Part shown: positions 3,192-17,501 of the stretch, one piece after another | How the letters are laid out: each line of letters opens with the position of its first letter | Position numbering within the stretch: position 1 is the stretch's first letter | IMG/VR virus record: IMGVR_UViG_3300044802_000094 | Coordinates: 1 to 38,078 of that record | Origin: a virus | Strand: one strand, 5' to 3' | DNA: 38,078 bases | Made by a program: the position numbers and the translations under genes | Notes under the pieces: generated by a model | Databases searched by the model: none | What the model saw: only the letters and a program-made list of their open reading frames with translations | Told to the model about the DNA's origin: nothing

Positions 3192-3553
3192 ATTCAATTT
3201 TTCTCATCGGGAGAGCAGGGAAAGACCCTGTTTGCAAGGAAGTCGGCCAGAATAACACCCTTATTGCGGAGTTCTCAGTAGCGACCTCAGAGCCCCCGCG
3301 TCAAAAGGGTGGTGAATGGACTACTACTTGGCATTCGGTGAAGTGCTTCAGCAAGACCGCCGAGAAGGTTAGGAATATGCTCAGGAAAGGAGATAACGTA
3401 GCCCTTGCTGGCAGGATCGAGGTTGAGTCTTGGGAAGACAAGGAAGGTAATAAAAAGTCACGTACCGTAGTTTTGGTGCGGTTTGACAGCGATATTGTTA
3501 TTGAGCCCAGGTCCGAGAGTCGGCCGCAAGGCGATAACAACGCGGCATGGTAA
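3188..3553 (+). CDS. ssb: Single-stranded DNA-binding protein
   Basis: 121 aa OB-fold SSB: starts MNSIFLIGRAGKDP, followed by AEFSVATSE, TTWHSVKCFSKTAEKV and GDNVALAGRIEVESWEDKEG, the usual order for phage and bacterial SSB. It lacks the long acidic tail of bacterial SSB, ending in NNAAW. It protects single strands during replication and works with the annealing protein encoded immediately upstream (ATGA overlap). The gap to the next gene is only 3 nt. Confidence 0.9.
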   Translation: MNSIFLIGRAGKDPVCKEVGQNNTLIAEFSVATSEPPRQKGGEWTTTWHSVKCFSKTAEKVRNMLRKGDNVALAGRIEVESWEDKEGNKKSRTVVLVRFDSDIVIEPRSESRPQGDNNAAW

Positions 3554-3556
3554 GCG

Positions 3557-3985
3557 ATGAGGGTAATTGTCAATAACGAGCAGGCCCGGAAGGAATTTGT
3601 TCGGAAGATCGAGCAGATTGACCTAAAAGGCCGGACTTTCACCGCTGAATTCAAGTTGTTTCGCCGACAGCGTTCTTTGAAGCAGAACCGTTTGATGTGG
3701 ATGTGGTTGCACTGTATTAGTGACGAAACCGGGAACGACCCCGAGGACCTTCATGAATACTTTGGGAAGAAATACCTTCCGTGGATTTCTAAACAGGTGT
3801 TCGATGAAGAAGTTACAAGGAGACTCTCAACGACTCAGCTTGACAGTAAACAGTTCACAGAGTATCTTGATAGGATAAAGGCTGAGATGTTGAATCAAGG
3901 TATTTTTCTACCAGAGCCAGGTGAGCAAGCTTTTGATGATTTCTACGCGAGGTATAAGGTACGAGATGGAGGAACTTTTTTATGA
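3557..3985 (+). CDS. ninB: NinB-like recombination protein
   Basis: 142 aa. It matches the NinB (lambda Orf) family, which acts as a recombination mediator on SSB-coated DNA: RSLKQNRLMWMWLHCIS near the N-terminus, TTQLDSKQFTEYLDRIKAEM in the middle, and GIFLPEPGE near the end. The location right after ssb agrees with that role. The stop TGA overlaps an ATG at 3982 that was the original start of the next gene before an insertion element entered at 3993. Confidence 0.82.
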   Translation: MRVIVNNEQARKEFVRKIEQIDLKGRTFTAEFKLFRRQRSLKQNRLMWMWLHCISDETGNDPEDLHEYFGKKYLPWISKQVFDEEVTRRLSTTQLDSKQFTEYLDRIKAEMLNQGIFLPEPGEQAFDDFYARYKVRDGGTFL

Positions 3986-3992
3986 GTCTTAT

Positions 3993-4194
3993 GAGAGAAA
4001 ACCACGGGCCTTGTGCCCGTGGATGAATCGAGTCATTAACCGTGATTCTTCTGATCCTCAATGTATCTTTTAACCATATCCTCTGAAATATGACCAACAG
4101 AATTATAATAAGTGCTATGACTCCACAACCCAGACCCCCAGTGGCCTTGCGGTGGCAGACTCAAGCCACGCCCCTTGTGGGCGTGGTAGTTGAC
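3993..4194. mobile_element. 202-bp IS200/IS605-derived relic (MITE-like) with tnpA tail
   Basis: Left end: flank CTTAT, then 9 nt and an 8-bp hairpin with CTTGT loop (4002-4022). Right end: 8-bp hairpin with CTTGT loop (4166-4186), then 8 nt TAGTTGAC ending at 4194. Distances and loops equal those of the intact TnpB element at 16196-17474 read on its coding strand, and bases around the hairpins also match (AAACCACGGG at the left; AAGCCACG and GTGGTAGTT at the right). Inside is only the 3' end of a Y1 transposase. The element cannot move itself but could be mobilised in trans. Boundaries come from the pairwise comparison and may be off by a few bases. Confidence 0.85.
4036..4146 (-). pseudogene. 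tnpA: Remnant of IS200/IS605 TnpA (Y1 transposase) C-terminus
   Basis: On the minus strand the last about 35 codons of an IS200-type transposase remain: LWSHSTYYNSVGHISEDMVKRYIEDQ, corresponding to the family's C-terminal LW...YF...TVG...RYIENQ block. The catalytic HUH motif and the tyrosine helix are missing, so it cannot be active. In the orientation of the element ends, tnpA reads toward the left end and tnpB (in the related element) reads toward the right end, which is the divergent IS605 order. Confidence 0.75.
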
Positions 4195-5941: not shown

Positions 5942-7087
5942 ATGAAGCATTCTATTTGTGGGTTTAACCATGCGGCTCTCTTATTGAACTTTAAATGTGA
6001 TTACGATGACGCTCAAATATTAAGCTGTATTGTTGGGTTTAGAGATACCGGAAAGATGAAAGAAATTACTGTTAATGAGAAAAAATATTTTTGGGTTTAT
6101 TACCAATGGATTATTGAGCAGTTACCAGGATTACGGTGTAGGGATAAGCGTTCTTTAGCTCGCAGGATGGATAGATATGTTAATAACGGATTAATGGAAA
6201 AGCACGTTGAGCAGGGTAATAGTACTTATTATAGATTCATTGAAAAACAGCTAGAAATCCTTCAATCCTACCCCTGTGAAAAATTTGTTACCCCTGGACG
6301 TGAAAGTACAACCCCCCTGGACGTGAAAGTACAACCCCCTGGACGTGAAAGTACAACCCCCCTGGACGTGAAAGTACAACCCCCTGGACGTGAAAGTACA
6401 ACCATAGATTCTTCTTTAATTATTAAAAGAAAGAAAGAAGATAAGAAGAAGGTATCTCCTCTTTTAAATGAATCAAACAACAAATACCTGCCACTATCAG
6501 AGTATCTCCTTAAAAAGATAAAAGATTCAGGCACAGATGCAGTTTTCAAAGAAAGTGACATTGGTAAGTGGAATAACCACTTCAGGCTCATAATCGAGCA
6601 GGATGGCCGATCTGAAGGTAGAATAAGGGCAAAAATTGATGAGGTTTTCGAAGATCAGTTTTGGAGCAAACAGATACGCAGCGCTGGAACTTTGCGTGAG
6701 AAGTGGAAATTAGGACGTTTGGATCGACTTGGAGAGAATAAGAAAACCGAAAACGATGATGAAGAAACCGCACCAGAAGCCCCTAAAACACCTTTTCAGC
6801 GATTCAAAGGCAACACGACCCTAACCGACTCCGAAGTGGTTCTGAGCTATCTGTATCGACAATGGGAGGCTATTTACGGGGATAAGGGATGGCGGGAGTA
6901 CAATTTTCCTAGCGCGGATTCAACCACAGAAGCGCTTTACCGTGAAATTTGGGAAGTTTATCGAGGTATAAAGGACAAGAAGCAAGCTTTTGATGAGATT
7001 TTTAAGCGGTTTAAGATTACGCCAGATCAAACCGAAAGACATATTAATCACGTGGTAGGATCGAGCGTTGAAAATGAGGAATGGTGA
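5942..7087 (+). CDS. Replication initiator with internal origin iterons (lambda O-like role)
   Basis: 381 aa, ATG 5942 after GGGGGATAAG. The N-terminal about 100 residues look like a winged-helix DNA-binding domain of phage initiators (MKEITVNEKKYFWVYYQWI, then SLARRMDRYVNNGLMEKH). Residues about 118-154 are encoded by five tandem DNA iterons and give an alternating PGRESTT / PLDVKVQP pattern. A Lys/Glu-rich linker and a C-terminal helical domain follow, possibly for helicase loading. The gene directly overlaps dnaB. Initiator next to helicase with the origin inside the initiator gene is the lambda/P22 plan. Sequence family not recognised beyond this; the role rests on architecture. Confidence 0.72.
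   Translation: MKHSICGFNHAALLLNFKCDYDDAQILSCIVGFRDTGKMKEITVNEKKYFWVYYQWIIEQLPGLRCRDKRSLARRMDRYVNNGLMEKHVEQGNSTYYRFIEKQLEILQSYPCEKFVTPGRESTTPLDVKVQPPGRESTTPLDVKVQPPGRESTTIDSSLIIKRKKEDKKKVSPLLNESNNKYLPLSEYLLKKIKDSGTDAVFKESDIGKWNNHFRLIIEQDGRSEGRIRAKIDEVFEDQFWSKQIRSAGTLREKWKLGRLDRLGENKKTENDDEETAPEAPKTPFQRFKGNTTLTDSEVVLSYLYRQWEAIYGDKGWREYNFPSADSTTEALYREIWEVYRGIKDKKQAFDEIFKRFKITPDQTERHINHVVGSSVENEEW
6293..6402 (+). repeat. Five origin iterons inside the initiator gene
   Basis: Five copies of CCTGGACGTGAAAGTACAAC start at 6293, 6316, 6338, 6361 and 6383. Spacing alternates 23, 22, 23, 22 bp (about two helical turns), joined by C-runs. A weak possible sixth copy lies just upstream near 6273. An AT-rich, purine-rich stretch follows (6403-6475), a candidate unwinding element. 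This is the expected layout of a lambda-type origin. Confidence 0.85.
6403..6475. other. Probable DNA-unwinding element of the origin
   Basis: This stretch right of the iterons is very AT-rich and strongly purine-biased on the plus strand in its middle (AAAAGAAAGAAAGAAGATAA), like the AT-rich part of lambda ori. It remains coding (a Lys-rich linker of the initiator). Confidence 0.5.
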
Positions 7088-10072: not shown

Positions 10073-12883
10073 TTGATTAAAACGGTTCTTGTAATTTGCC
10101 CTGCTACCCTGAAATTAAATTGGCTGAGAGAAATGGAGAAATGGTTGGTTCGGCCAATGAAAATAGGGATAGCGGACACAAAGACGGTTCCTATGCCGGA
10201 GAATGGGTACGATGTGGTGATTACAAATTACGAAGCAGTGGGAAAAACGAACAAGAGATTATCGTCGATTCAATGGGATATGATGATAATTGACGAAGCA
10301 CACTATCTAAAAAATCAAAAAACCATTCGATATCAGTCTATTATGGGCACGGTGGTAGCGAAGAATGAAAGAGCAGTTTGCTATAATAGGATTCAGGCGC
10401 GAAGGAGAATTTTTACCACCGGTACACCAATAGTGAATTGTCCTTCGGAATTGTGGCCCTTAATTAGTGCAGTGGACCCGGAGAAATGGAACCAAAAAAC
10501 GTTCTGGTATTTCCACAAAAGATATTGCAATGTGCAAGCTGGAAGATATGGAACTGATTTTAAAGGTGCGGCAAGCCCGGAACGCCTTGAGGAATTACAG
10601 GTAATCTTAAGGGAACGCTGCATGATTCGCCGGATGAAGAGTGAAGTTTTGACCGAGTTGCCGCCTAAGATTCGGCAGGTGGTGGAGTTAGAGTACGACG
10701 AAAATGATGGAGCAGTTAAGACCGCATTAGCGCATGAGAAAGAATATCAGGACAAAATAAACGACGACGAGGGCATGGCGGAGATGGCCGCTCAGGCCGA
10801 GCTTGCTAAGGCTACAGATAACGACGACGAATACAAAGCCGCGATAGAGCGCATGAGCAAGGCTAATTCGTACCGGTTCGAGGAAATGGCGAGAATACGG
10901 CATGAAACAGCGGTTGCGAAGATGCCTTATGCTATAGAGTACCTAAAAGAACAGCTCGAAGTGGTTCCGAAGGCTGTTGTTTTTTTTCATCACCATGAAG
11001 TAGGGTTGGCTTTTCAAAAAGCATGGCCACTGGAATCGGTTTTGATTTACGGCGAAGTGAGCCTGGAAGATCGACAGGCAGCAGTGGATCGGTTTCAAAG
11101 TGATCCTACATGCAGGCTCGCTATTGTATCCATAAAGGCCGGAGGATTAGGCATTACCCTCACGGCGGCTTCGCATGAGTATGTTATAGAGCTACCGTGG
11201 ACGCCGGGGGATTTGAGTCAAGCCGAGGATCGATGTATATTAAAAGATTCTCTTGTTTTCTGTCTTCGCTCTGGTTATGTTAATAACATGAGCATGATAA
11301 AAATTCAAGACGTAAAGATTGGCGATAGTGTTTTAACGCATGAAGGACGCTATAAAGACGTGTCTGATGTAAGTAAGCACGAACACCGTGGAATGGTTAC
11401 AAGAATAGAATACGTTGGGTGGCATGAACCACTGGCTTGTACTTTCGATCATAAAGTTTTTGTAAAAAGGAATGGTATCCCTCAGTGGTTGTGGGCATGT
11501 AATGTATTACCTTCTGACTCTATGGCGTTTCCAAAACATGCTTTTTATCATACCCTTGATTCTGTTAAAATCAAAGATGAGTGGAGGATATATAAAGAAG
11601 CAAAGAAGGAAGCAGTGTGTAGTATTAATGGTTGCTTAAATCCTATTGAAGCGCGTGGTATGTGCAGAATACATTACCGAGAGGTTTTAAATAAAAAAGA
11701 AAGGCCAATCGCTCCACCACAAATAAATAGCCGGTATGTAAGATTGCCTGACAATATCAAGATAACCGAAGACTGGCTGTATTTATTCGGATGGTTTGTC
11801 GCCGAAGGATTTTCTTCTATTGCCTCTGGAAAATCTAAGTTTGTATCTTTTTCAGGTCATGAGAAGGAAGAAAATGTTTTGTTAAAAATATCAAAAACAC
11901 TTTTAACTTTAGGAATAAAATCTACAATTTATAGAAAAAAGAATTCTCATGGTGTTGAGATGAGGTCTTATTCTGGAGAGCTTGCATTATGGTTTCGTGA
12001 TTGGTTTGGTCACATGGCTAAAAACAAAACGCTACCAACCGAAATTACAAGGCTTTGCCCTGAACAAGCTGCTATTTTCCTCAAAGGCTATACGGATGGA
12101 GATGGGTACCAAAGGGGAAATCAAGTAGAATGGGTAAGTGCAAGCCCTGTTCTTTGCTATCAAATATGTGAGTTGGCTATACGGGCAGGGTTTATTCCTA
12201 CAATGAGAAGGGGTAGTTTAAAAAGCGGGAATCATTGGGTTGGTGGGTATACAAAATTTGGTAAGGGTAGCAATAAGAGGTTGAATGATCAGGATGAAAA
12301 TTACATTTATCGTCCAATAAGAAGGGTCGAAACCAAAAATGAGAACGTAATGGTTTATGATTTAACTGTTGAAGAAGACCATTCTTTTACGGTTGGTTTT
12401 GCAACGGTTCATAATTGTCACAGAATAGGCCAGAAGGATGTAGTGAATGTATATCATCTTGTCTTAAGAGATTCTATTGATGTTAAGATGGCTAATACGA
12501 TTATTTCTAAGCAGAAAATTATTGAGTCTGCTTTGGATAAAATAGCGGATCGGGAACCAGTGCTTCCGATGCGAGATTATGCAGCTTCTCATAACAGTAG
12601 CCGGAAGCAAATATTCGAAGTGGCGGCGAAATTAACCCAGGAGCAAATTGAGGTTATTCACGAAGGGCTTAAATATTTGGCCGGTAATGATATTGATTGG
12701 GCGCACGCAGTGAATGGAGTTGGATTTAGTAAGATCGATGCGAAGATAGGGCACTCATTGGCTGAATGTGATTATTTGAGTCCTAAGCAAGCCGCTATAG
12801 GTTCGAAGCTGATAAGAAAGTATCGTGGGCAAATACCCGAATTTTACGAAAAGATGTCTTGCAAAAAAGATGAGGAATGGTAA
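10073..12883 (+). CDS. SNF2-type helicase, main part with intein
   Basis: 936 aa from TTG 10073 (the frame is open from 10025). Helicase motifs: VLVICPATLKLNW (Ia), MIIDEAHYLKN (II, DEAH), FTTGTPIVNCPSELW (III), VVFFHHHEVGLAF and VSIKAGGLGITLTAASHEYVIELPW (V), and motif VI SQAEDR-CHRIGQKD split by a 394-aa intein. A C-terminal extension of about 130 aa follows. SMARCAL1-type SNF2 proteins remodel or anneal DNA; in phages they are found in replication modules. No ATG with a good ribosome site lies between 10025 and 10073, so expression of this part alone is doubtful. Confidence 0.78.
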   Translation: MIKTVLVICPATLKLNWLREMEKWLVRPMKIGIADTKTVPMPENGYDVVITNYEAVGKTNKRLSSIQWDMMIIDEAHYLKNQKTIRYQSIMGTVVAKNERAVCYNRIQARRRIFTTGTPIVNCPSELWPLISAVDPEKWNQKTFWYFHKRYCNVQAGRYGTDFKGAASPERLEELQVILRERCMIRRMKSEVLTELPPKIRQVVELEYDENDGAVKTALAHEKEYQDKINDDEGMAEMAAQAELAKATDNDDEYKAAIERMSKANSYRFEEMARIRHETAVAKMPYAIEYLKEQLEVVPKAVVFFHHHEVGLAFQKAWPLESVLIYGEVSLEDRQAAVDRFQSDPTCRLAIVSIKAGGLGITLTAASHEYVIELPWTPGDLSQAEDRCILKDSLVFCLRSGYVNNMSMIKIQDVKIGDSVLTHEGRYKDVSDVSKHEHRGMVTRIEYVGWHEPLACTFDHKVFVKRNGIPQWLWACNVLPSDSMAFPKHAFYHTLDSVKIKDEWRIYKEAKKEAVCSINGCLNPIEARGMCRIHYREVLNKKERPIAPPQINSRYVRLPDNIKITEDWLYLFGWFVAEGFSSIASGKSKFVSFSGHEKEENVLLKISKTLLTLGIKSTIYRKKNSHGVEMRSYSGELALWFRDWFGHMAKNKTLPTEITRLCPEQAAIFLKGYTDGDGYQRGNQVEWVSASPVLCYQICELAIRAGFIPTMRRGSLKSGNHWVGGYTKFGKGSNKRLNDQDENYIYRPIRRVETKNENVMVYDLTVEEDHSFTVGFATVHNCHRIGQKDVVNVYHLVLRDSIDVKMANTIISKQKIIESALDKIADREPVLPMRDYAASHNSSRKQIFEVAAKLTQEQIEVIHEGLKYLAGNDIDWAHAVNGVGFSKIDAKIGHSLAECDYLSPKQAAIGSKLIRKYRGQIPEFYEKMSCKKDEEW
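11234..12415 (+). other. Intein with LAGLIDADG homing endonuclease
   Basis: 394 codons inserted in helicase motif VI, between R (AEDR) and C (CHRIGQ). Cys1 starts block A (CILKDSLVFCLRSG); block B has ACTFDHKVFV; block F is VYDLTVEEDHSFTV; the end is FATVHN with Cys as +1 residue, so all splicing residues are present. The two endonuclease motifs are LFGWFVAEG and LKGYTDGDG. A cysteine-rich insert (CSINGCLNPIEARGMCRIHY) lies between the splicing and endonuclease parts. The intein is more AT-rich than the host gene. It should splice if translated. Confidence 0.92.
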
Positions 12884-12891
12884 AATAAATG

Positions 12892-12920
12892 TAGACAACA
12901 AAGCTTATTTGATATATATT
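12892..12920 (+). promoter_or_regulatory. Promoter P3 (TAGACA-17-TATATT)
   Basis: TAGACA 12892-12897, 17-bp spacer, TATATT 12915-12920 followed by AGTA. The predicted start near 12927 leaves a short leader with AAAGGAGG before ATG 12949. Confidence 0.65.
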
Positions 12921-12948
12921 AGTATTTACACTATTTAAAGGAGGTTTT

Positions 12949-13288: not shown

Positions 13289-14728
13289 GTGAATAAAATT
13301 AAAAGAACAGGGTCATTTGCCGGTGGTGGAATTACTGGCGCAGAAAAGGCGAGAATGTTGGATATTTCTGAAAAATGGAATAGGGTTGCATTGCAAACAG
13401 GAAAAACCGATAGGAAGAAATTAAAGGAGGCTATTTTAAAATTGTATAGGGTAGGTGGCTTGCCTGAGCCTAATGTAGTAATTGTTGATTCTCCGATAAT
13501 TATGACTATGGCATATGGGTTATCTGCGGCGATTTGGTATTTAAGGAAGTATTTGATACAGGCGACCGACCAGGCGACCAGACAGGCGACCTATCAGGCG
13601 ACCTATCAGGCGACCAGACAGGCGACCGACCAGGCGACCAGACAGGCGACCGACCAGGCGACCGACCAGGCGACCAGACAGGCGACCGACCAGGCGACCG
13701 ACCAGGCGACCAGACAGGCGACCGACCAGGCGACCGACCAGGCGACCGACCAGGCGACCAGACAGGCGACCGACCAGGCGACCGACCAGGCGACCAGACA
13801 GGCGACCTATCAGGCGACCGACCAGGCGACCAGACAGGCGACCTATCAGGCGACCAGACAGGCGACCGACCAGGCGACCAGACAGGCGACCGACCAGGCG
13901 ACCGACCAGGCGACCGACCAGGCGACCGACCAGGCGACCTATCAGGCGACCAGACAGGCGACCAGACAGGCGACCGACCAGGCGACCGACCAGGCGACCG
14001 ACCAGGCGACCGATTTTATTAAGGTAATTTTGAATTTTTTACCAAGGAGGAATATTAATTTTGTTTTTGAATGTTGCAAAAGATGGTATAGTAATTATCA
14101 GGGCGGAAACTTGTGGGCTGCGTTTCCAGCTTGGGTAGAAGCTTGTAGAGACGTACTGTGTTTGAGTGATTTAAAATGTTGGGACGCTTGGCAGGCTTGG
14201 GAAGAATGTGCTTTGTACGGAGGGTTTAGGGTAATGCATGAAAAATTTTGTATCGTATGTGATTTCCCTGAAGTTAACAACACAAAGAAAGTCAATAATA
14301 AATATATTTTGCATTGTGAAAATGGTCCAGCTCAAAGGTGGAGAGACGGCCTTGAAACATACTTTTTGAACGGTGTTCAGGTAACAAAAGAAATAGTTAT
14401 GACCCCGCCTGAAAAGATAGATTGTAATGTGCTTCTGACTGAAAAAAATGCAGAAGTGCGGCGAGAAATAGTGCGTAAGGTGGGAGTTGAAATTGTTTGT
14501 AATCGGCTTGGTGCAAAGAAAATAGACGAGGGTATTGACGATAGAGGGCAACCATGCGAATTGTTGAACCTGGATTTAGGGGAGGGTAGATTTCGACCTT
14601 ACATAAAACTATTAAATCCTTCAATAGGAACATATCACATTGAGGGCGTACATCCTACTTGTAGAACAGTAAAAGAGGCGCTTGCGTGGAGGAACCAAAG
14701 CACAGAAAAACCAGTAGCACTAACATGA
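13289..14728 (+). CDS. DUF6745-like protein with 38 QAT(D/R/Y) repeats
   Basis: 479 aa with a GTG start after AAAAGGGG. Residues 1-90: a helical N-terminal domain with LKEAILKLYRVGGLPEPNVVIVDSP. Residues about 91-242: 38 perfect four-residue repeats QATX with X = D, R or Y. Then a Trp-rich segment (NLWAAFPAWVEACRD, CWDAWQAWEEC) and a C-terminal DUF6745-type region: HCENGPAQRWRDGLETYFLNGVQV, NAEVRREIVRKVG, DDRGQPCELLNL, PTCRTVKEALAWRN. Members commonly have AT-rich-in-alanine-threonine repeats here. Biochemical function is unknown. The stop overlaps the next ATG (ATGA). Confidence 0.82.
   Translation: MNKIKRTGSFAGGGITGAEKARMLDISEKWNRVALQTGKTDRKKLKEAILKLYRVGGLPEPNVVIVDSPIIMTMAYGLSAAIWYLRKYLIQATDQATRQATYQATYQATRQATDQATRQATDQATDQATRQATDQATDQATRQATDQATDQATDQATRQATDQATDQATRQATYQATDQATRQATYQATRQATDQATRQATDQATDQATDQATDQATYQATRQATRQATDQATDQATDQATDFIKVILNFLPRRNINFVFECCKRWYSNYQGGNLWAAFPAWVEACRDVLCLSDLKCWDAWQAWEECALYGGFRVMHEKFCIVCDFPEVNNTKKVNNKYILHCENGPAQRWRDGLETYFLNGVQVTKEIVMTPPEKIDCNVLLTEKNAEVRREIVRKVGVEIVCNRLGAKKIDEGIDDRGQPCELLNLDLGEGRFRPYIKLLNPSIGTYHIEGVHPTCRTVKEALAWRNQSTEKPVALT
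13559..14014 (+). repeat. 12-bp coding minisatellite, 38 units
   Basis: 38 tandem units CAGGCGACC followed by one variable codon: GAC/GAT (Asp), AGA (Arg) or TAT (Tyr). The first nine bases are invariant throughout. All three forward frames are open across the array. The array therefore tolerates unit gain or loss without frameshift. Confidence 0.95.
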
Positions 14729-16165: not shown

Positions 16166-16226
16166 GTATGGCAAAACGTCGGGTAACTTGCCACTGTAAA
16201 CTACCACGGGCACAAGGCCCGTGGCT

Positions 16227-17381
16227 TTAAACAACAGGCATCGAGCAGGTATCGCAAGTATGCAACACCATCTCAATAGTACCCGGTTTTCTGGGGGATT
16301 TACTTCTCCCCGTATCTATCGAGTTCAACCCGATAGACATAGAACGTCCTGCAATGTTCTTGCTGGCGTTCCAATCCGCGTCTGCGGTGTAACCGCAGCT
16401 AATACATTTGAACAAAAAGCCGTCCCTGTTGGATTTGTCTATATGACCACATTTACTGCACATACGAGAAGTATTTTTGGGAGAAACAACCTCCACAGAA
16501 ATACCTTTGGAAGCAGCCTTATAAGTCACACAAAATGTAAATTTTCCATAAGGCCACCGGTTAATTTTACTTCTAAGAGTTTTACCTTTGTTTTTAGATG
16601 CTTCTCGTATGTTAGACAAATCCTCAAGAACAATTTTTCTTGCACCAACAGAATCAGCCCAATTTATAAGTCTTTTAGAAGCAACATGCACCGCATGTTC
16701 AGTTACGGAAGCCTCGTGTCCCGACATCCTCTTCATGAGTTGTCGAGACGATCTGGTTCCAACTGCTTGTACTTTGGCTCTGGTTTTTCTGATGTTAGAA
16801 AGTTTATTGTTCAGATGATCAGCTTTATAAAACAGTTTATTGCCATTAGAGTCAGTCGCTACAAAAAGTCTTTTGATACCTTGATCCACCCCAACAATAA
16901 CGCCTTGCGTTTTAGGTTCTGGTACATCAATCTCATAGGAGAGGTTAAAAAACCATTGCTTACCACGAAGAGATATTTTAGAATCTTTCCATTTCTCTGG
17001 AAGAGGTCTGGGATCATTAAATGTTATTTTATCCGCCCAAAGGGTGATTCCTTTTTGTTTGGATCGAGCAAAATCTCTTTTCCAAATGACAGGGATGGAA
17101 GATTTATTAAAAACAGCAAGACTCCATTTTTTATGCTTGGTTTTTTGAGCCATATAAGATGCAGTAACGGTTCTGAAAAGAGTACAGGTGAGCTGGGAAG
17201 GAAGGCTAAATTTTTCTCTTACCGTTCCATAATAGATTTTTGCAAGACGATTAGAATTAGTATCTTTTTGCTCATAGATTATTTTAGAGAGCCAATTACA
17301 CGCATCAAGCCAATTTGGAAGGATTTGATCGGCCTTATGATTTCCGGTGAATTTAAGCTTAATGACTCTTATGACTTTCAT
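16227..17381 (-). CDS. tnpB: TnpB RNA-guided endonuclease
   Basis: 384 aa, within the usual TnpB range (350-450). ATG 17381 (MKVIRVIKLKF) is chosen because the in-element promoter lies just upstream; further in-frame codons to 17486 would read through the promoter and left-end hairpin. RuvC-like catalytic residues are all present: D166 in GVDQGIKR, E253 in VLEDLSNI, D336 in ADADWNASKNI. The zinc ribbon C308/C311 and C326/C329 sits between. Known TnpBs cut DNA using an omega RNA made from the right end of the element; the guide here would come from the flank beyond 16196. It appears intact. Confidence 0.92.
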   Translation of the reverse strand: MKVIRVIKLKFTGNHKADQILPNWLDACNWLSKIIYEQKDTNSNRLAKIYYGTVREKFSLPSQLTCTLFRTVTASYMAQKTKHKKWSLAVFNKSSIPVIWKRDFARSKQKGITLWADKITFNDPRPLPEKWKDSKISLRGKQWFFNLSYEIDVPEPKTQGVIVGVDQGIKRLFVATDSNGNKLFYKADHLNNKLSNIRKTRAKVQAVGTRSSRQLMKRMSGHEASVTEHAVHVASKRLINWADSVGARKIVLEDLSNIREASKNKGKTLRSKINRWPYGKFTFCVTYKAASKGISVEVVSPKNTSRMCSKCGHIDKSNRDGFLFKCISCGYTADADWNASKNIAGRSMSIGLNSIDTGRSKSPRKPGTIEMVLHTCDTCSMPVV

Positions 17382-17388
17382 ACTATTA

Positions 17389-17417
17389 ATTATACTCTGT
17401 TTTCCTTGAAAAGTCAA
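17389..17417 (-). promoter_or_regulatory. tnpB promoter (TTGACT-17-TATAAT)
   Basis: On the minus strand TTGACT (17417-17412), 17-bp spacer and TATAAT (17394-17389), nearly consensus. The predicted start coincides with the ATG at 17381, which would make a leaderless message. The promoter is inside the element. Confidence 0.8.
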
Positions 17418-17501
17418 CCTATTTAATTGGAGGACGCAATTCCTCCACGGGGACAAGCCCCGTGGTTTCCTTGCGTAAAAGATCATGAAAGGAAATGGGA
17501 T

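What the first reader, a model, noticed from the sequence alone, without database searches (positions are those of the whole stretch)
16196..17474. TnpB element and the relic share both ends and could be mobilised by one TnpA
Read on the tnpB strand, both elements have a target-like flank (TTTAC or CTTAT), 9 nt, an 8-bp hairpin with CTTGT loop at the left, and an 8-bp hairpin with CTTGT loop plus TAGTTKAC at the right. Spacing is identical. The relic keeps tnpA in the divergent position. One phage thus holds two non-autonomous members of one family, one with an intact RNA-guided nuclease. The guide should be the sequence beyond 16196 on the minus strand (AGTGGCAAGTTACCCGACGT).
Basis: partly seen in the sequence, partly recalled or inferred. 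Interest (0 to 1): 0.72.

Follow-up and report, generated by a model that had tools for sequence, protein, structure and literature searches.

The report
Two transposase-less IS605 elements in a phage

Summary
Four 8-bp hairpins with CTTGT loops bound a 1289-bp TnpB-only element (16196-17484, minus strand) and a 211-bp relic (3984-4194, plus strand) that keeps the last ~40 codons of an IS200-type tnpA.

The left boundaries were misread. TTTAC and CTTAT lie inside the elements. The true left cleavage sites are TCAT (17485-17488, minus strand) and TTAT (3980-3983), 19 and 18 nt from the hairpin foot, against 19 nt in IS608.

This rests on three results. The leaders recur at unrelated insertion sites. 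A related phage lacking the element carries TCAT|AATGGCAAGTTA at the same spot.

No complete tnpA with these ends was found. Related phages carry full IS605 copies with the same left-end architecture but different loops, beside TnpB-only copies. Mobilisation by one TnpA is plausible but unshown.

Kind: TnpB-only (IS1341-type) element plus a PATE-like deletion derivative. New members of a known kind.

The parts
16196..17484 (-). whole TnpB-only (IS1341-type) element, 1289 bp; left end at 17484, right end at 16196
   Evidence: Left: leader GA..TTACGCAAGGAAA recurs in L012 and L014 at other sites, guide/cleavage pairing. Right: flank changes after TTTAC in L012 and L014; homology with related phage L015/L064 ends here.
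16227..17381 (-). tnpB, 384 aa, RuvC and zinc-finger motifs intact
   Evidence: PF07282 4.2e-21, PF01385 1.7e-12; NF040570 guided_TnpB 1.8e-44; conserved D166, C308/C311/C326/C329, D336; dN/dS 0.13-0.22.
17485..17488 (-). left cleavage/target site TCAT kept in the flank; predicted TAM of this TnpB
   Evidence: Pairs with left guide GAAA by the IS608 code; 20/20 left ends agree.
17466..17469 (-). left guide G_L, GAAA
   Evidence: 4 nt directly 5' of the hairpin foot.
17445..17465 (-). left hairpin CCACGGGG-CTTGT-CCCCGTGG
16225..16228 (-). right guide G_R, AAAG (overlaps the tnpB stop)
16204..16224 (-). right hairpin CCACGGGC-CTTGT-GCCCGTGG, predicted 3' hairpin of the omega RNA scaffold
   Evidence: compensatory changes in L012 and L013 with loop constant
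16196..16199 (-). right cleavage site C_R, TTAC
   Evidence: pairs with AAAG by the IS608 code, 26/26 right ends
16176..16195 (-). predicted omega RNA guide, AGTGGCAAGTTACCCGACGT
   Evidence: sequence directly beyond the right end; the related phage without the element has TCAT|AATGGCAAGTTATTC here
3984..4194 (+). relic, 211 bp, both ends kept, core deleted (PATE-like)
   Evidence: leader GAGTCTTAYGAGAGAAAA recurs, with small changes, in L028/L037, L030 and L041 at other sites; right end CAAG/TGAC as in L002 and L003
3980..3983 (+). left cleavage/target site TTAT of the relic
   Evidence: pairs with AAAA by the IS608 code
3998..4001 (+). left guide AAAA of the relic
4002..4022 (+). left hairpin of the relic
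4036..4161 (-). C-terminal remnant of an IS200-type tnpA (about 40 codons, keeps ...VKRYIEDQ, lacks the HUH part)
   Evidence: PF01797 positions 91-121, NF033573, place 4051-4143
4162..4165 (+). right guide CAAG of the relic
4166..4186 (+). right hairpin of the relic
4191..4194 (+). right cleavage site TGAC of the relic

Best explanation
Both features are members of the IS200/IS605 single-strand ('peel and paste') family that lack their own transposase. The TnpB element (16196-17484) is a TnpB-only element. A Y1 transposase supplied in trans would bind its two CTTGT hairpins and cut at TCAT (left) and TTAC (right), chosen by pairing with guides GAAA and AAAG. TnpB would use an RNA from the 3' part of its gene and the right end, carrying the flank AGTGGCAAGTTACC... 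as guide, to cut copies that lack the element next to a TCAT TAM, so the element is restored by repair. The relic (3984-4194) is an internal-deletion product of a tnpA-bearing IS605 copy. It keeps both hairpins, guides AAAA and CAAG, cleavage sites TTAT and TGAC, and a tnpA tail, so it could still move in trans. Shown by sequence: anatomy, boundaries, guide/cleavage pairing, purifying selection on tnpB, absence of a complete tnpA in the record. Inferred: trans mobilisation, TAM, omega RNA activity, homing.
For: Hairpins beyond chance. TnpB and Y1 families. IS608 code (G1-C2, G2-C1, G4-C4, after PMC5934647) met at 17-19 nt from the foot in 20/20 left ends of three guide types; permuting guides gives mean 9.0, max 17, none of 10,000 reaches 20; shuffling flanks gives mean 3.1, max 9. 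Right ends 26/26 with pairs AAAG/TTAC, AAAA/TTAT, CAAG/TGAC, GAAG/TCAC, GAAT/TCAA; L059-L061 add AAAA/TTAT left and GAAC/TCAG, GAAT/TCAA right. Leaders recur at unrelated insertion sites. Related phage without the element: homology reaches the right junction and TCAT lies on its other side. dN/dS 0.13-0.22. Full IS605 copies with the same left-end architecture in phages G015 and G017, which also hold TnpB-only copies. TAM equals the TnpA target in ISDra2 (PMC8612924).
Against: No complete tnpA with CTTGT hairpins was found anywhere. The related phage's sequence beyond TCAT does not align with the window's other flank (about 440 bp more in L015), so the empty site is proved on one side only. 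The elements come from few subfamilies, so the 20 and 26 ends are not fully independent. At the right end, part of the pairing could also reflect an extended stem, although the covariation at guide position 4 cannot.
Confidence: 0.85

Rival explanations
1. One reading: the elements start after TTTAC (TnpB) and CTTAT (relic), 9 nt from the hairpin, and the TAM is TTTAC.
For: TTAC/TTAT do stand 9 nt from the hairpin in the window elements, and TTAC is the IS608 target (PMC5934647).
Against: The sequence upstream of it (GA..TTACGCAAGG; GAGTCTTAYGAGAG) is conserved between copies at unrelated sites. The pairing code is met at 9 nt in 2/20 left ends against 20/20 at 17-19 nt. A 9-nt leader does not fit the IS608 geometry (guide at +16 to +19).
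Confidence: 0.04
2. TnpB has been taken over by the phage (for example against competing phages) and the ends are leftovers without transposition.
For: Purifying selection on tnpB without a resident tnpA; the guide nearly matches a related phage that lacks the element.
Against: Ends, guides and cleavage sites stay matched in all copies, and copies sit at unrelated sites in different phages, which points to recent movement. No sign of a fixed locus.
Confidence: 0.08
3. The two elements belong to different TnpA partners: the TnpB element (type A ends) and the relic (type B-like left end, IscB-like right end) are not mobilised by the same enzyme. This differs from the best explanation only in the identity of the partner.
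For: Leaders and guide/cleavage pairs differ between them. The relic's left end resembles another TnpB subfamily (L030, L041) and its right end that of an IscB element (L003) and of L002.
Against: All four hairpins share stem pattern and CTTGT loop. G001 holds type A and type B together with no tnpA of its own. In IS608 the cleavage site is read by the guide and not by the protein (PMC5934647).
Confidence: 0.3

Closest known systems
IS608 / ISDra2 (IS200/IS605 family)
   Same: subterminal hairpins, 4-nt guides 5' of each foot, cleavage sites read by the same pairing rule, leader length 19 nt, TnpB with right-end-derived guide (PMC5934647, PMC8612924)
   Different: no complete tnpA in either window element; left sites TCAT and TTAT instead of TTAC or TTGAT
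IS1341-type TnpB-only elements
   Same: LE, tnpB, RE without transposase (PMC9956272)
   Different: nothing important; found in a phage, with CTTGT-loop ends
PATEs / terminal-only IS605 remnants of Haloquadratum
   Same: core-deleted IS605 copies with near-terminal palindromes, including remnants that keep only C-terminal pieces of divergent transposase genes (PMC3119063)
   Different: the relic keeps only the tnpA tail; here in a phage
IscB elements
   Same: L003, an IscB element (NF040563), has the same hairpin type, right end CAAG/TAGTTGAC and left pair AAAA/TTAT
   Different: carries IscB, not TnpB or tnpA

Membership tests
IS200/IS605 family (element ends) | subterminal hairpins near both ends, single-strand foldable | tested here: met
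IS200/IS605 family (element ends) | guide tetranucleotide 5' of each hairpin pairs with the cleavage site (G1-C2, G2-C1, G4-C4) | tested here: met
   20/20 left and 26/26 right ends, all four ends in the window (controls)
IS200/IS605 family (element ends) | insertion 3' to a short target kept in the left flank, no target duplication | tested here: inconclusive
   the related phage shows TCAT and a homologous right junction, but its other flank does not align
IS200/IS605 family, autonomous IS605 | complete Y1 transposase TnpA | tested here: not met
   only a 31-position C-terminal match in the window
TnpB-only (IS1341-type) element | intact TnpB between IS605-type ends without transposase | tested here: met
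TnpB RNA-guided nuclease | RuvC catalytic residues and zinc finger present | tested here: met
TnpB RNA-guided nuclease | omega RNA ending at the right end and TAM-dependent cleavage | not testable with these tools
   needs RNA sequencing and cleavage assay
PATE (terminal-only IS605 derivative) | both near-terminal palindromes kept, core deleted, no complete transposase | tested here: met
   relic 3984-4194

The most novel reading that the evidence does not exclude
In this phage group TnpB-only elements spread between phage genomes mainly by nuclease-driven homing: TnpB cuts related phages that lack the element at TCAT plus the flank, and repair copies it across. Rare excision would be supplied by any TnpA that recognises the shared CTTGT hairpins, which also serve TnpB, IscB and deletion relics.
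Probability: 0.25. Interest if true: 0.6.

Novelty: new member of a known kind. Interest (0 to 1): 0.32.

Why it matters
It corrects the predicted TAM of this phage TnpB from TTTAC to TCAT, so a cleavage test would be set up correctly. It also shows, in uncultured phages, that the IS608 guide/cleavage pairing rule holds across TnpB, IscB, full IS605 and relic elements, and that it can be used to find the true ends of elements with no transposase. The co-residence of several transposase-less elements in one phage makes trans-mobilisation and homing between phages testable.

Tried and rejected
Search for the parent tnpA: the relic's tnpA tail against viral contigs gave no relative. The left-end pattern in viral contigs gave only TnpB elements, relics or unresolved ends. 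The right-end pattern in 84,980 cellular species gave 4 hits: Herpetosiphon loci beside TnpB genes and a Sporomusa right end with no transposase gene noticed beside it. The left-end pattern in 398 genomes of the phylum of G028 gave one match with a poor stem that was not followed up, and none in 400 of the phylum of G027.

Relatives of gene 3557-3985, to find an empty relic site: none. The only phage similar at the TnpB site (L015) has no DNA similar to the relic region.

Rfam gives no known RNA. Host: not settled; the terminase is at most 38% identical to named phages.

Considered and rejected: right-end guide/cleavage match as a mere longer stem. It cannot explain AAAG/TTAC against AAAA/TTAT, or GAAG/TCAC against GAAT/TCAA and GAAC/TCAG.

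L036 first looked like one small element that broke the code; it is a left end followed by a separate 46-nt terminal-only element.

Full report
What is there. The window is a whole virus record of 38,078 bases as held, which may itself be a fragment of the virus. Four hairpins with an 8-bp stem and a CTTGT loop occur in it and no control hits do. Two bound tnpB on the minus strand, two bound a short stretch at about 4 kb on the plus strand. TnpB (384 aa, start at 17381) matches guided_TnpB at 1.8e-44, keeps its RuvC residues and zinc-finger cysteines, and shows dN/dS of 0.13, 0.22 and 0.15 against three relatives. The short stretch holds the last ~40 codons of an IS200-type transposase on the opposite strand.

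Relatives. A right-end pattern and the TnpB protein each retrieve copies in other phages: L001/L012 (92%), L014 (81-82%) and L013 (67%). The same hairpins bound a second TnpB subfamily ('type B', L030, L041, L042), a type B deletion relic (L028/L037), and an IscB element (L003, NF040563 7.7e-91). Phage G001 carries types A and B together; phage G002 carries a type B copy, the L028 relic and a further right end.

Where the elements begin. Comparing copies at unrelated insertion sites, the sequence GA..TTACGCAAGGAAA (window, L012, L014) and GAGTCTTAYGAGAGAAAA (relic, L030, and with small changes L028/L037, L041, L042) stays, while sequence further upstream changes. Directly outside stands TCAT (type A) or TTAT (relic, CTTGT-loop type B, IscB).

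Guide/cleavage pairing. In IS608 the tetranucleotide 5' of each hairpin pairs with the cleavage site: A+16 with T-3, A+17 with T-4, and by the same reading position 4 with position 4; GL AAAG/CL TTAC and GR GAAT/CR TCAA (PMC5934647). I applied this rule without adjustment. Shuffled guides reach at most 17 in 10,000 trials (mean 9.0) and shuffled flanks at most 9. Right ends: 26 of 26. Three full IS605 copies (L059-L061) add further agreeing ends, including GAAC/TCAG. The leader of 19 nt in the TnpB element equals that of IS608. Caveat: the ends come from a handful of subfamilies.

The site without the element. Only one related phage (L015/L064, 82% identical nearby) has the site. It reads, on the minus strand, CTCAT|AATGGCAAGTTATTC where the window has TTTCAT|element|AGTGGCAAGTTACCC. 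In the window the element truncates a small gene (MAKRRVTCH..., MTKRITCHYELV... in L015). On the other side the two phages differ by about 440 bp, so the left side is supported only by TCAT itself.

What follows for TnpB. In ISDra2 the TAM equals the TnpA target kept in the left flank (PMC8612924). Here that is TCAT, with T-rich sequence before it. It differs from the related phage's sequence at position 2 and again from position 13, so that phage is an imperfect target.

One TnpA for both? The window has no complete Y1 transposase. Y1 transposases occur in a minority of related phage records. In G015 and G017 a full IS605 copy (tnpA and tnpB, left end TTAC/AAAG, loops other than CTTGT) sits in the same record as a TnpB-only copy with the same left-end architecture. 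That makes help in trans likely in this group. No tnpA with CTTGT hairpins was found, so the specific claim for this phage is open.

Placement. The TnpB element is a TnpB-only (IS1341-type) member of the IS200/IS605 family (PMC9956272). The relic fits PATEs: core-deleted IS605 copies, including ones that keep only C-terminal pieces of divergent transposase genes, were described in Haloquadratum (PMC3119063). TnpB retention and gene-drive behaviour are published (PMC8612924, PMC11870625). The finding is sound after correction but ordinary in kind.

Noticed in passing
window 10073-12883: SNF2-like helicase with an intein (splicing domain and LAGLIDADG). Related phage L015 aligns on both sides (10075-11220 and 12437-12921) and lacks the insert.
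   Followed up: partly
window 13558-14010: 12-bp tandem repeats (ATDQATRQ...) inside ORF 13289-14728; L015 has a different repeat gene (SIGDGSRIGN...) in the corresponding region.
   Followed up: no
L036, about 3510-3570: 46-nt terminal-only element, TTAT|CCAATAGCCCGTAAAA-CCTCGTCCTTCAGGGCGGGG-AGGATGTCAA|, matching the ends of the full IS605 copy L059 in the same record.
   Followed up: partly
L015, about 6170-6260: proline tRNA-like sequence between parB and the next gene, absent from the window.
   Followed up: no
L003 3230-4681: IscB element whose ends share hairpin type, guides and right-end sequence with TnpB elements and the relic, which suggests one transposase pool for TnpB and IscB elements.
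   Followed up: partly
L062/L063 (G022/G021): truncated Y1 transposase ending just upstream of a tnpB in phage records.
   Followed up: no
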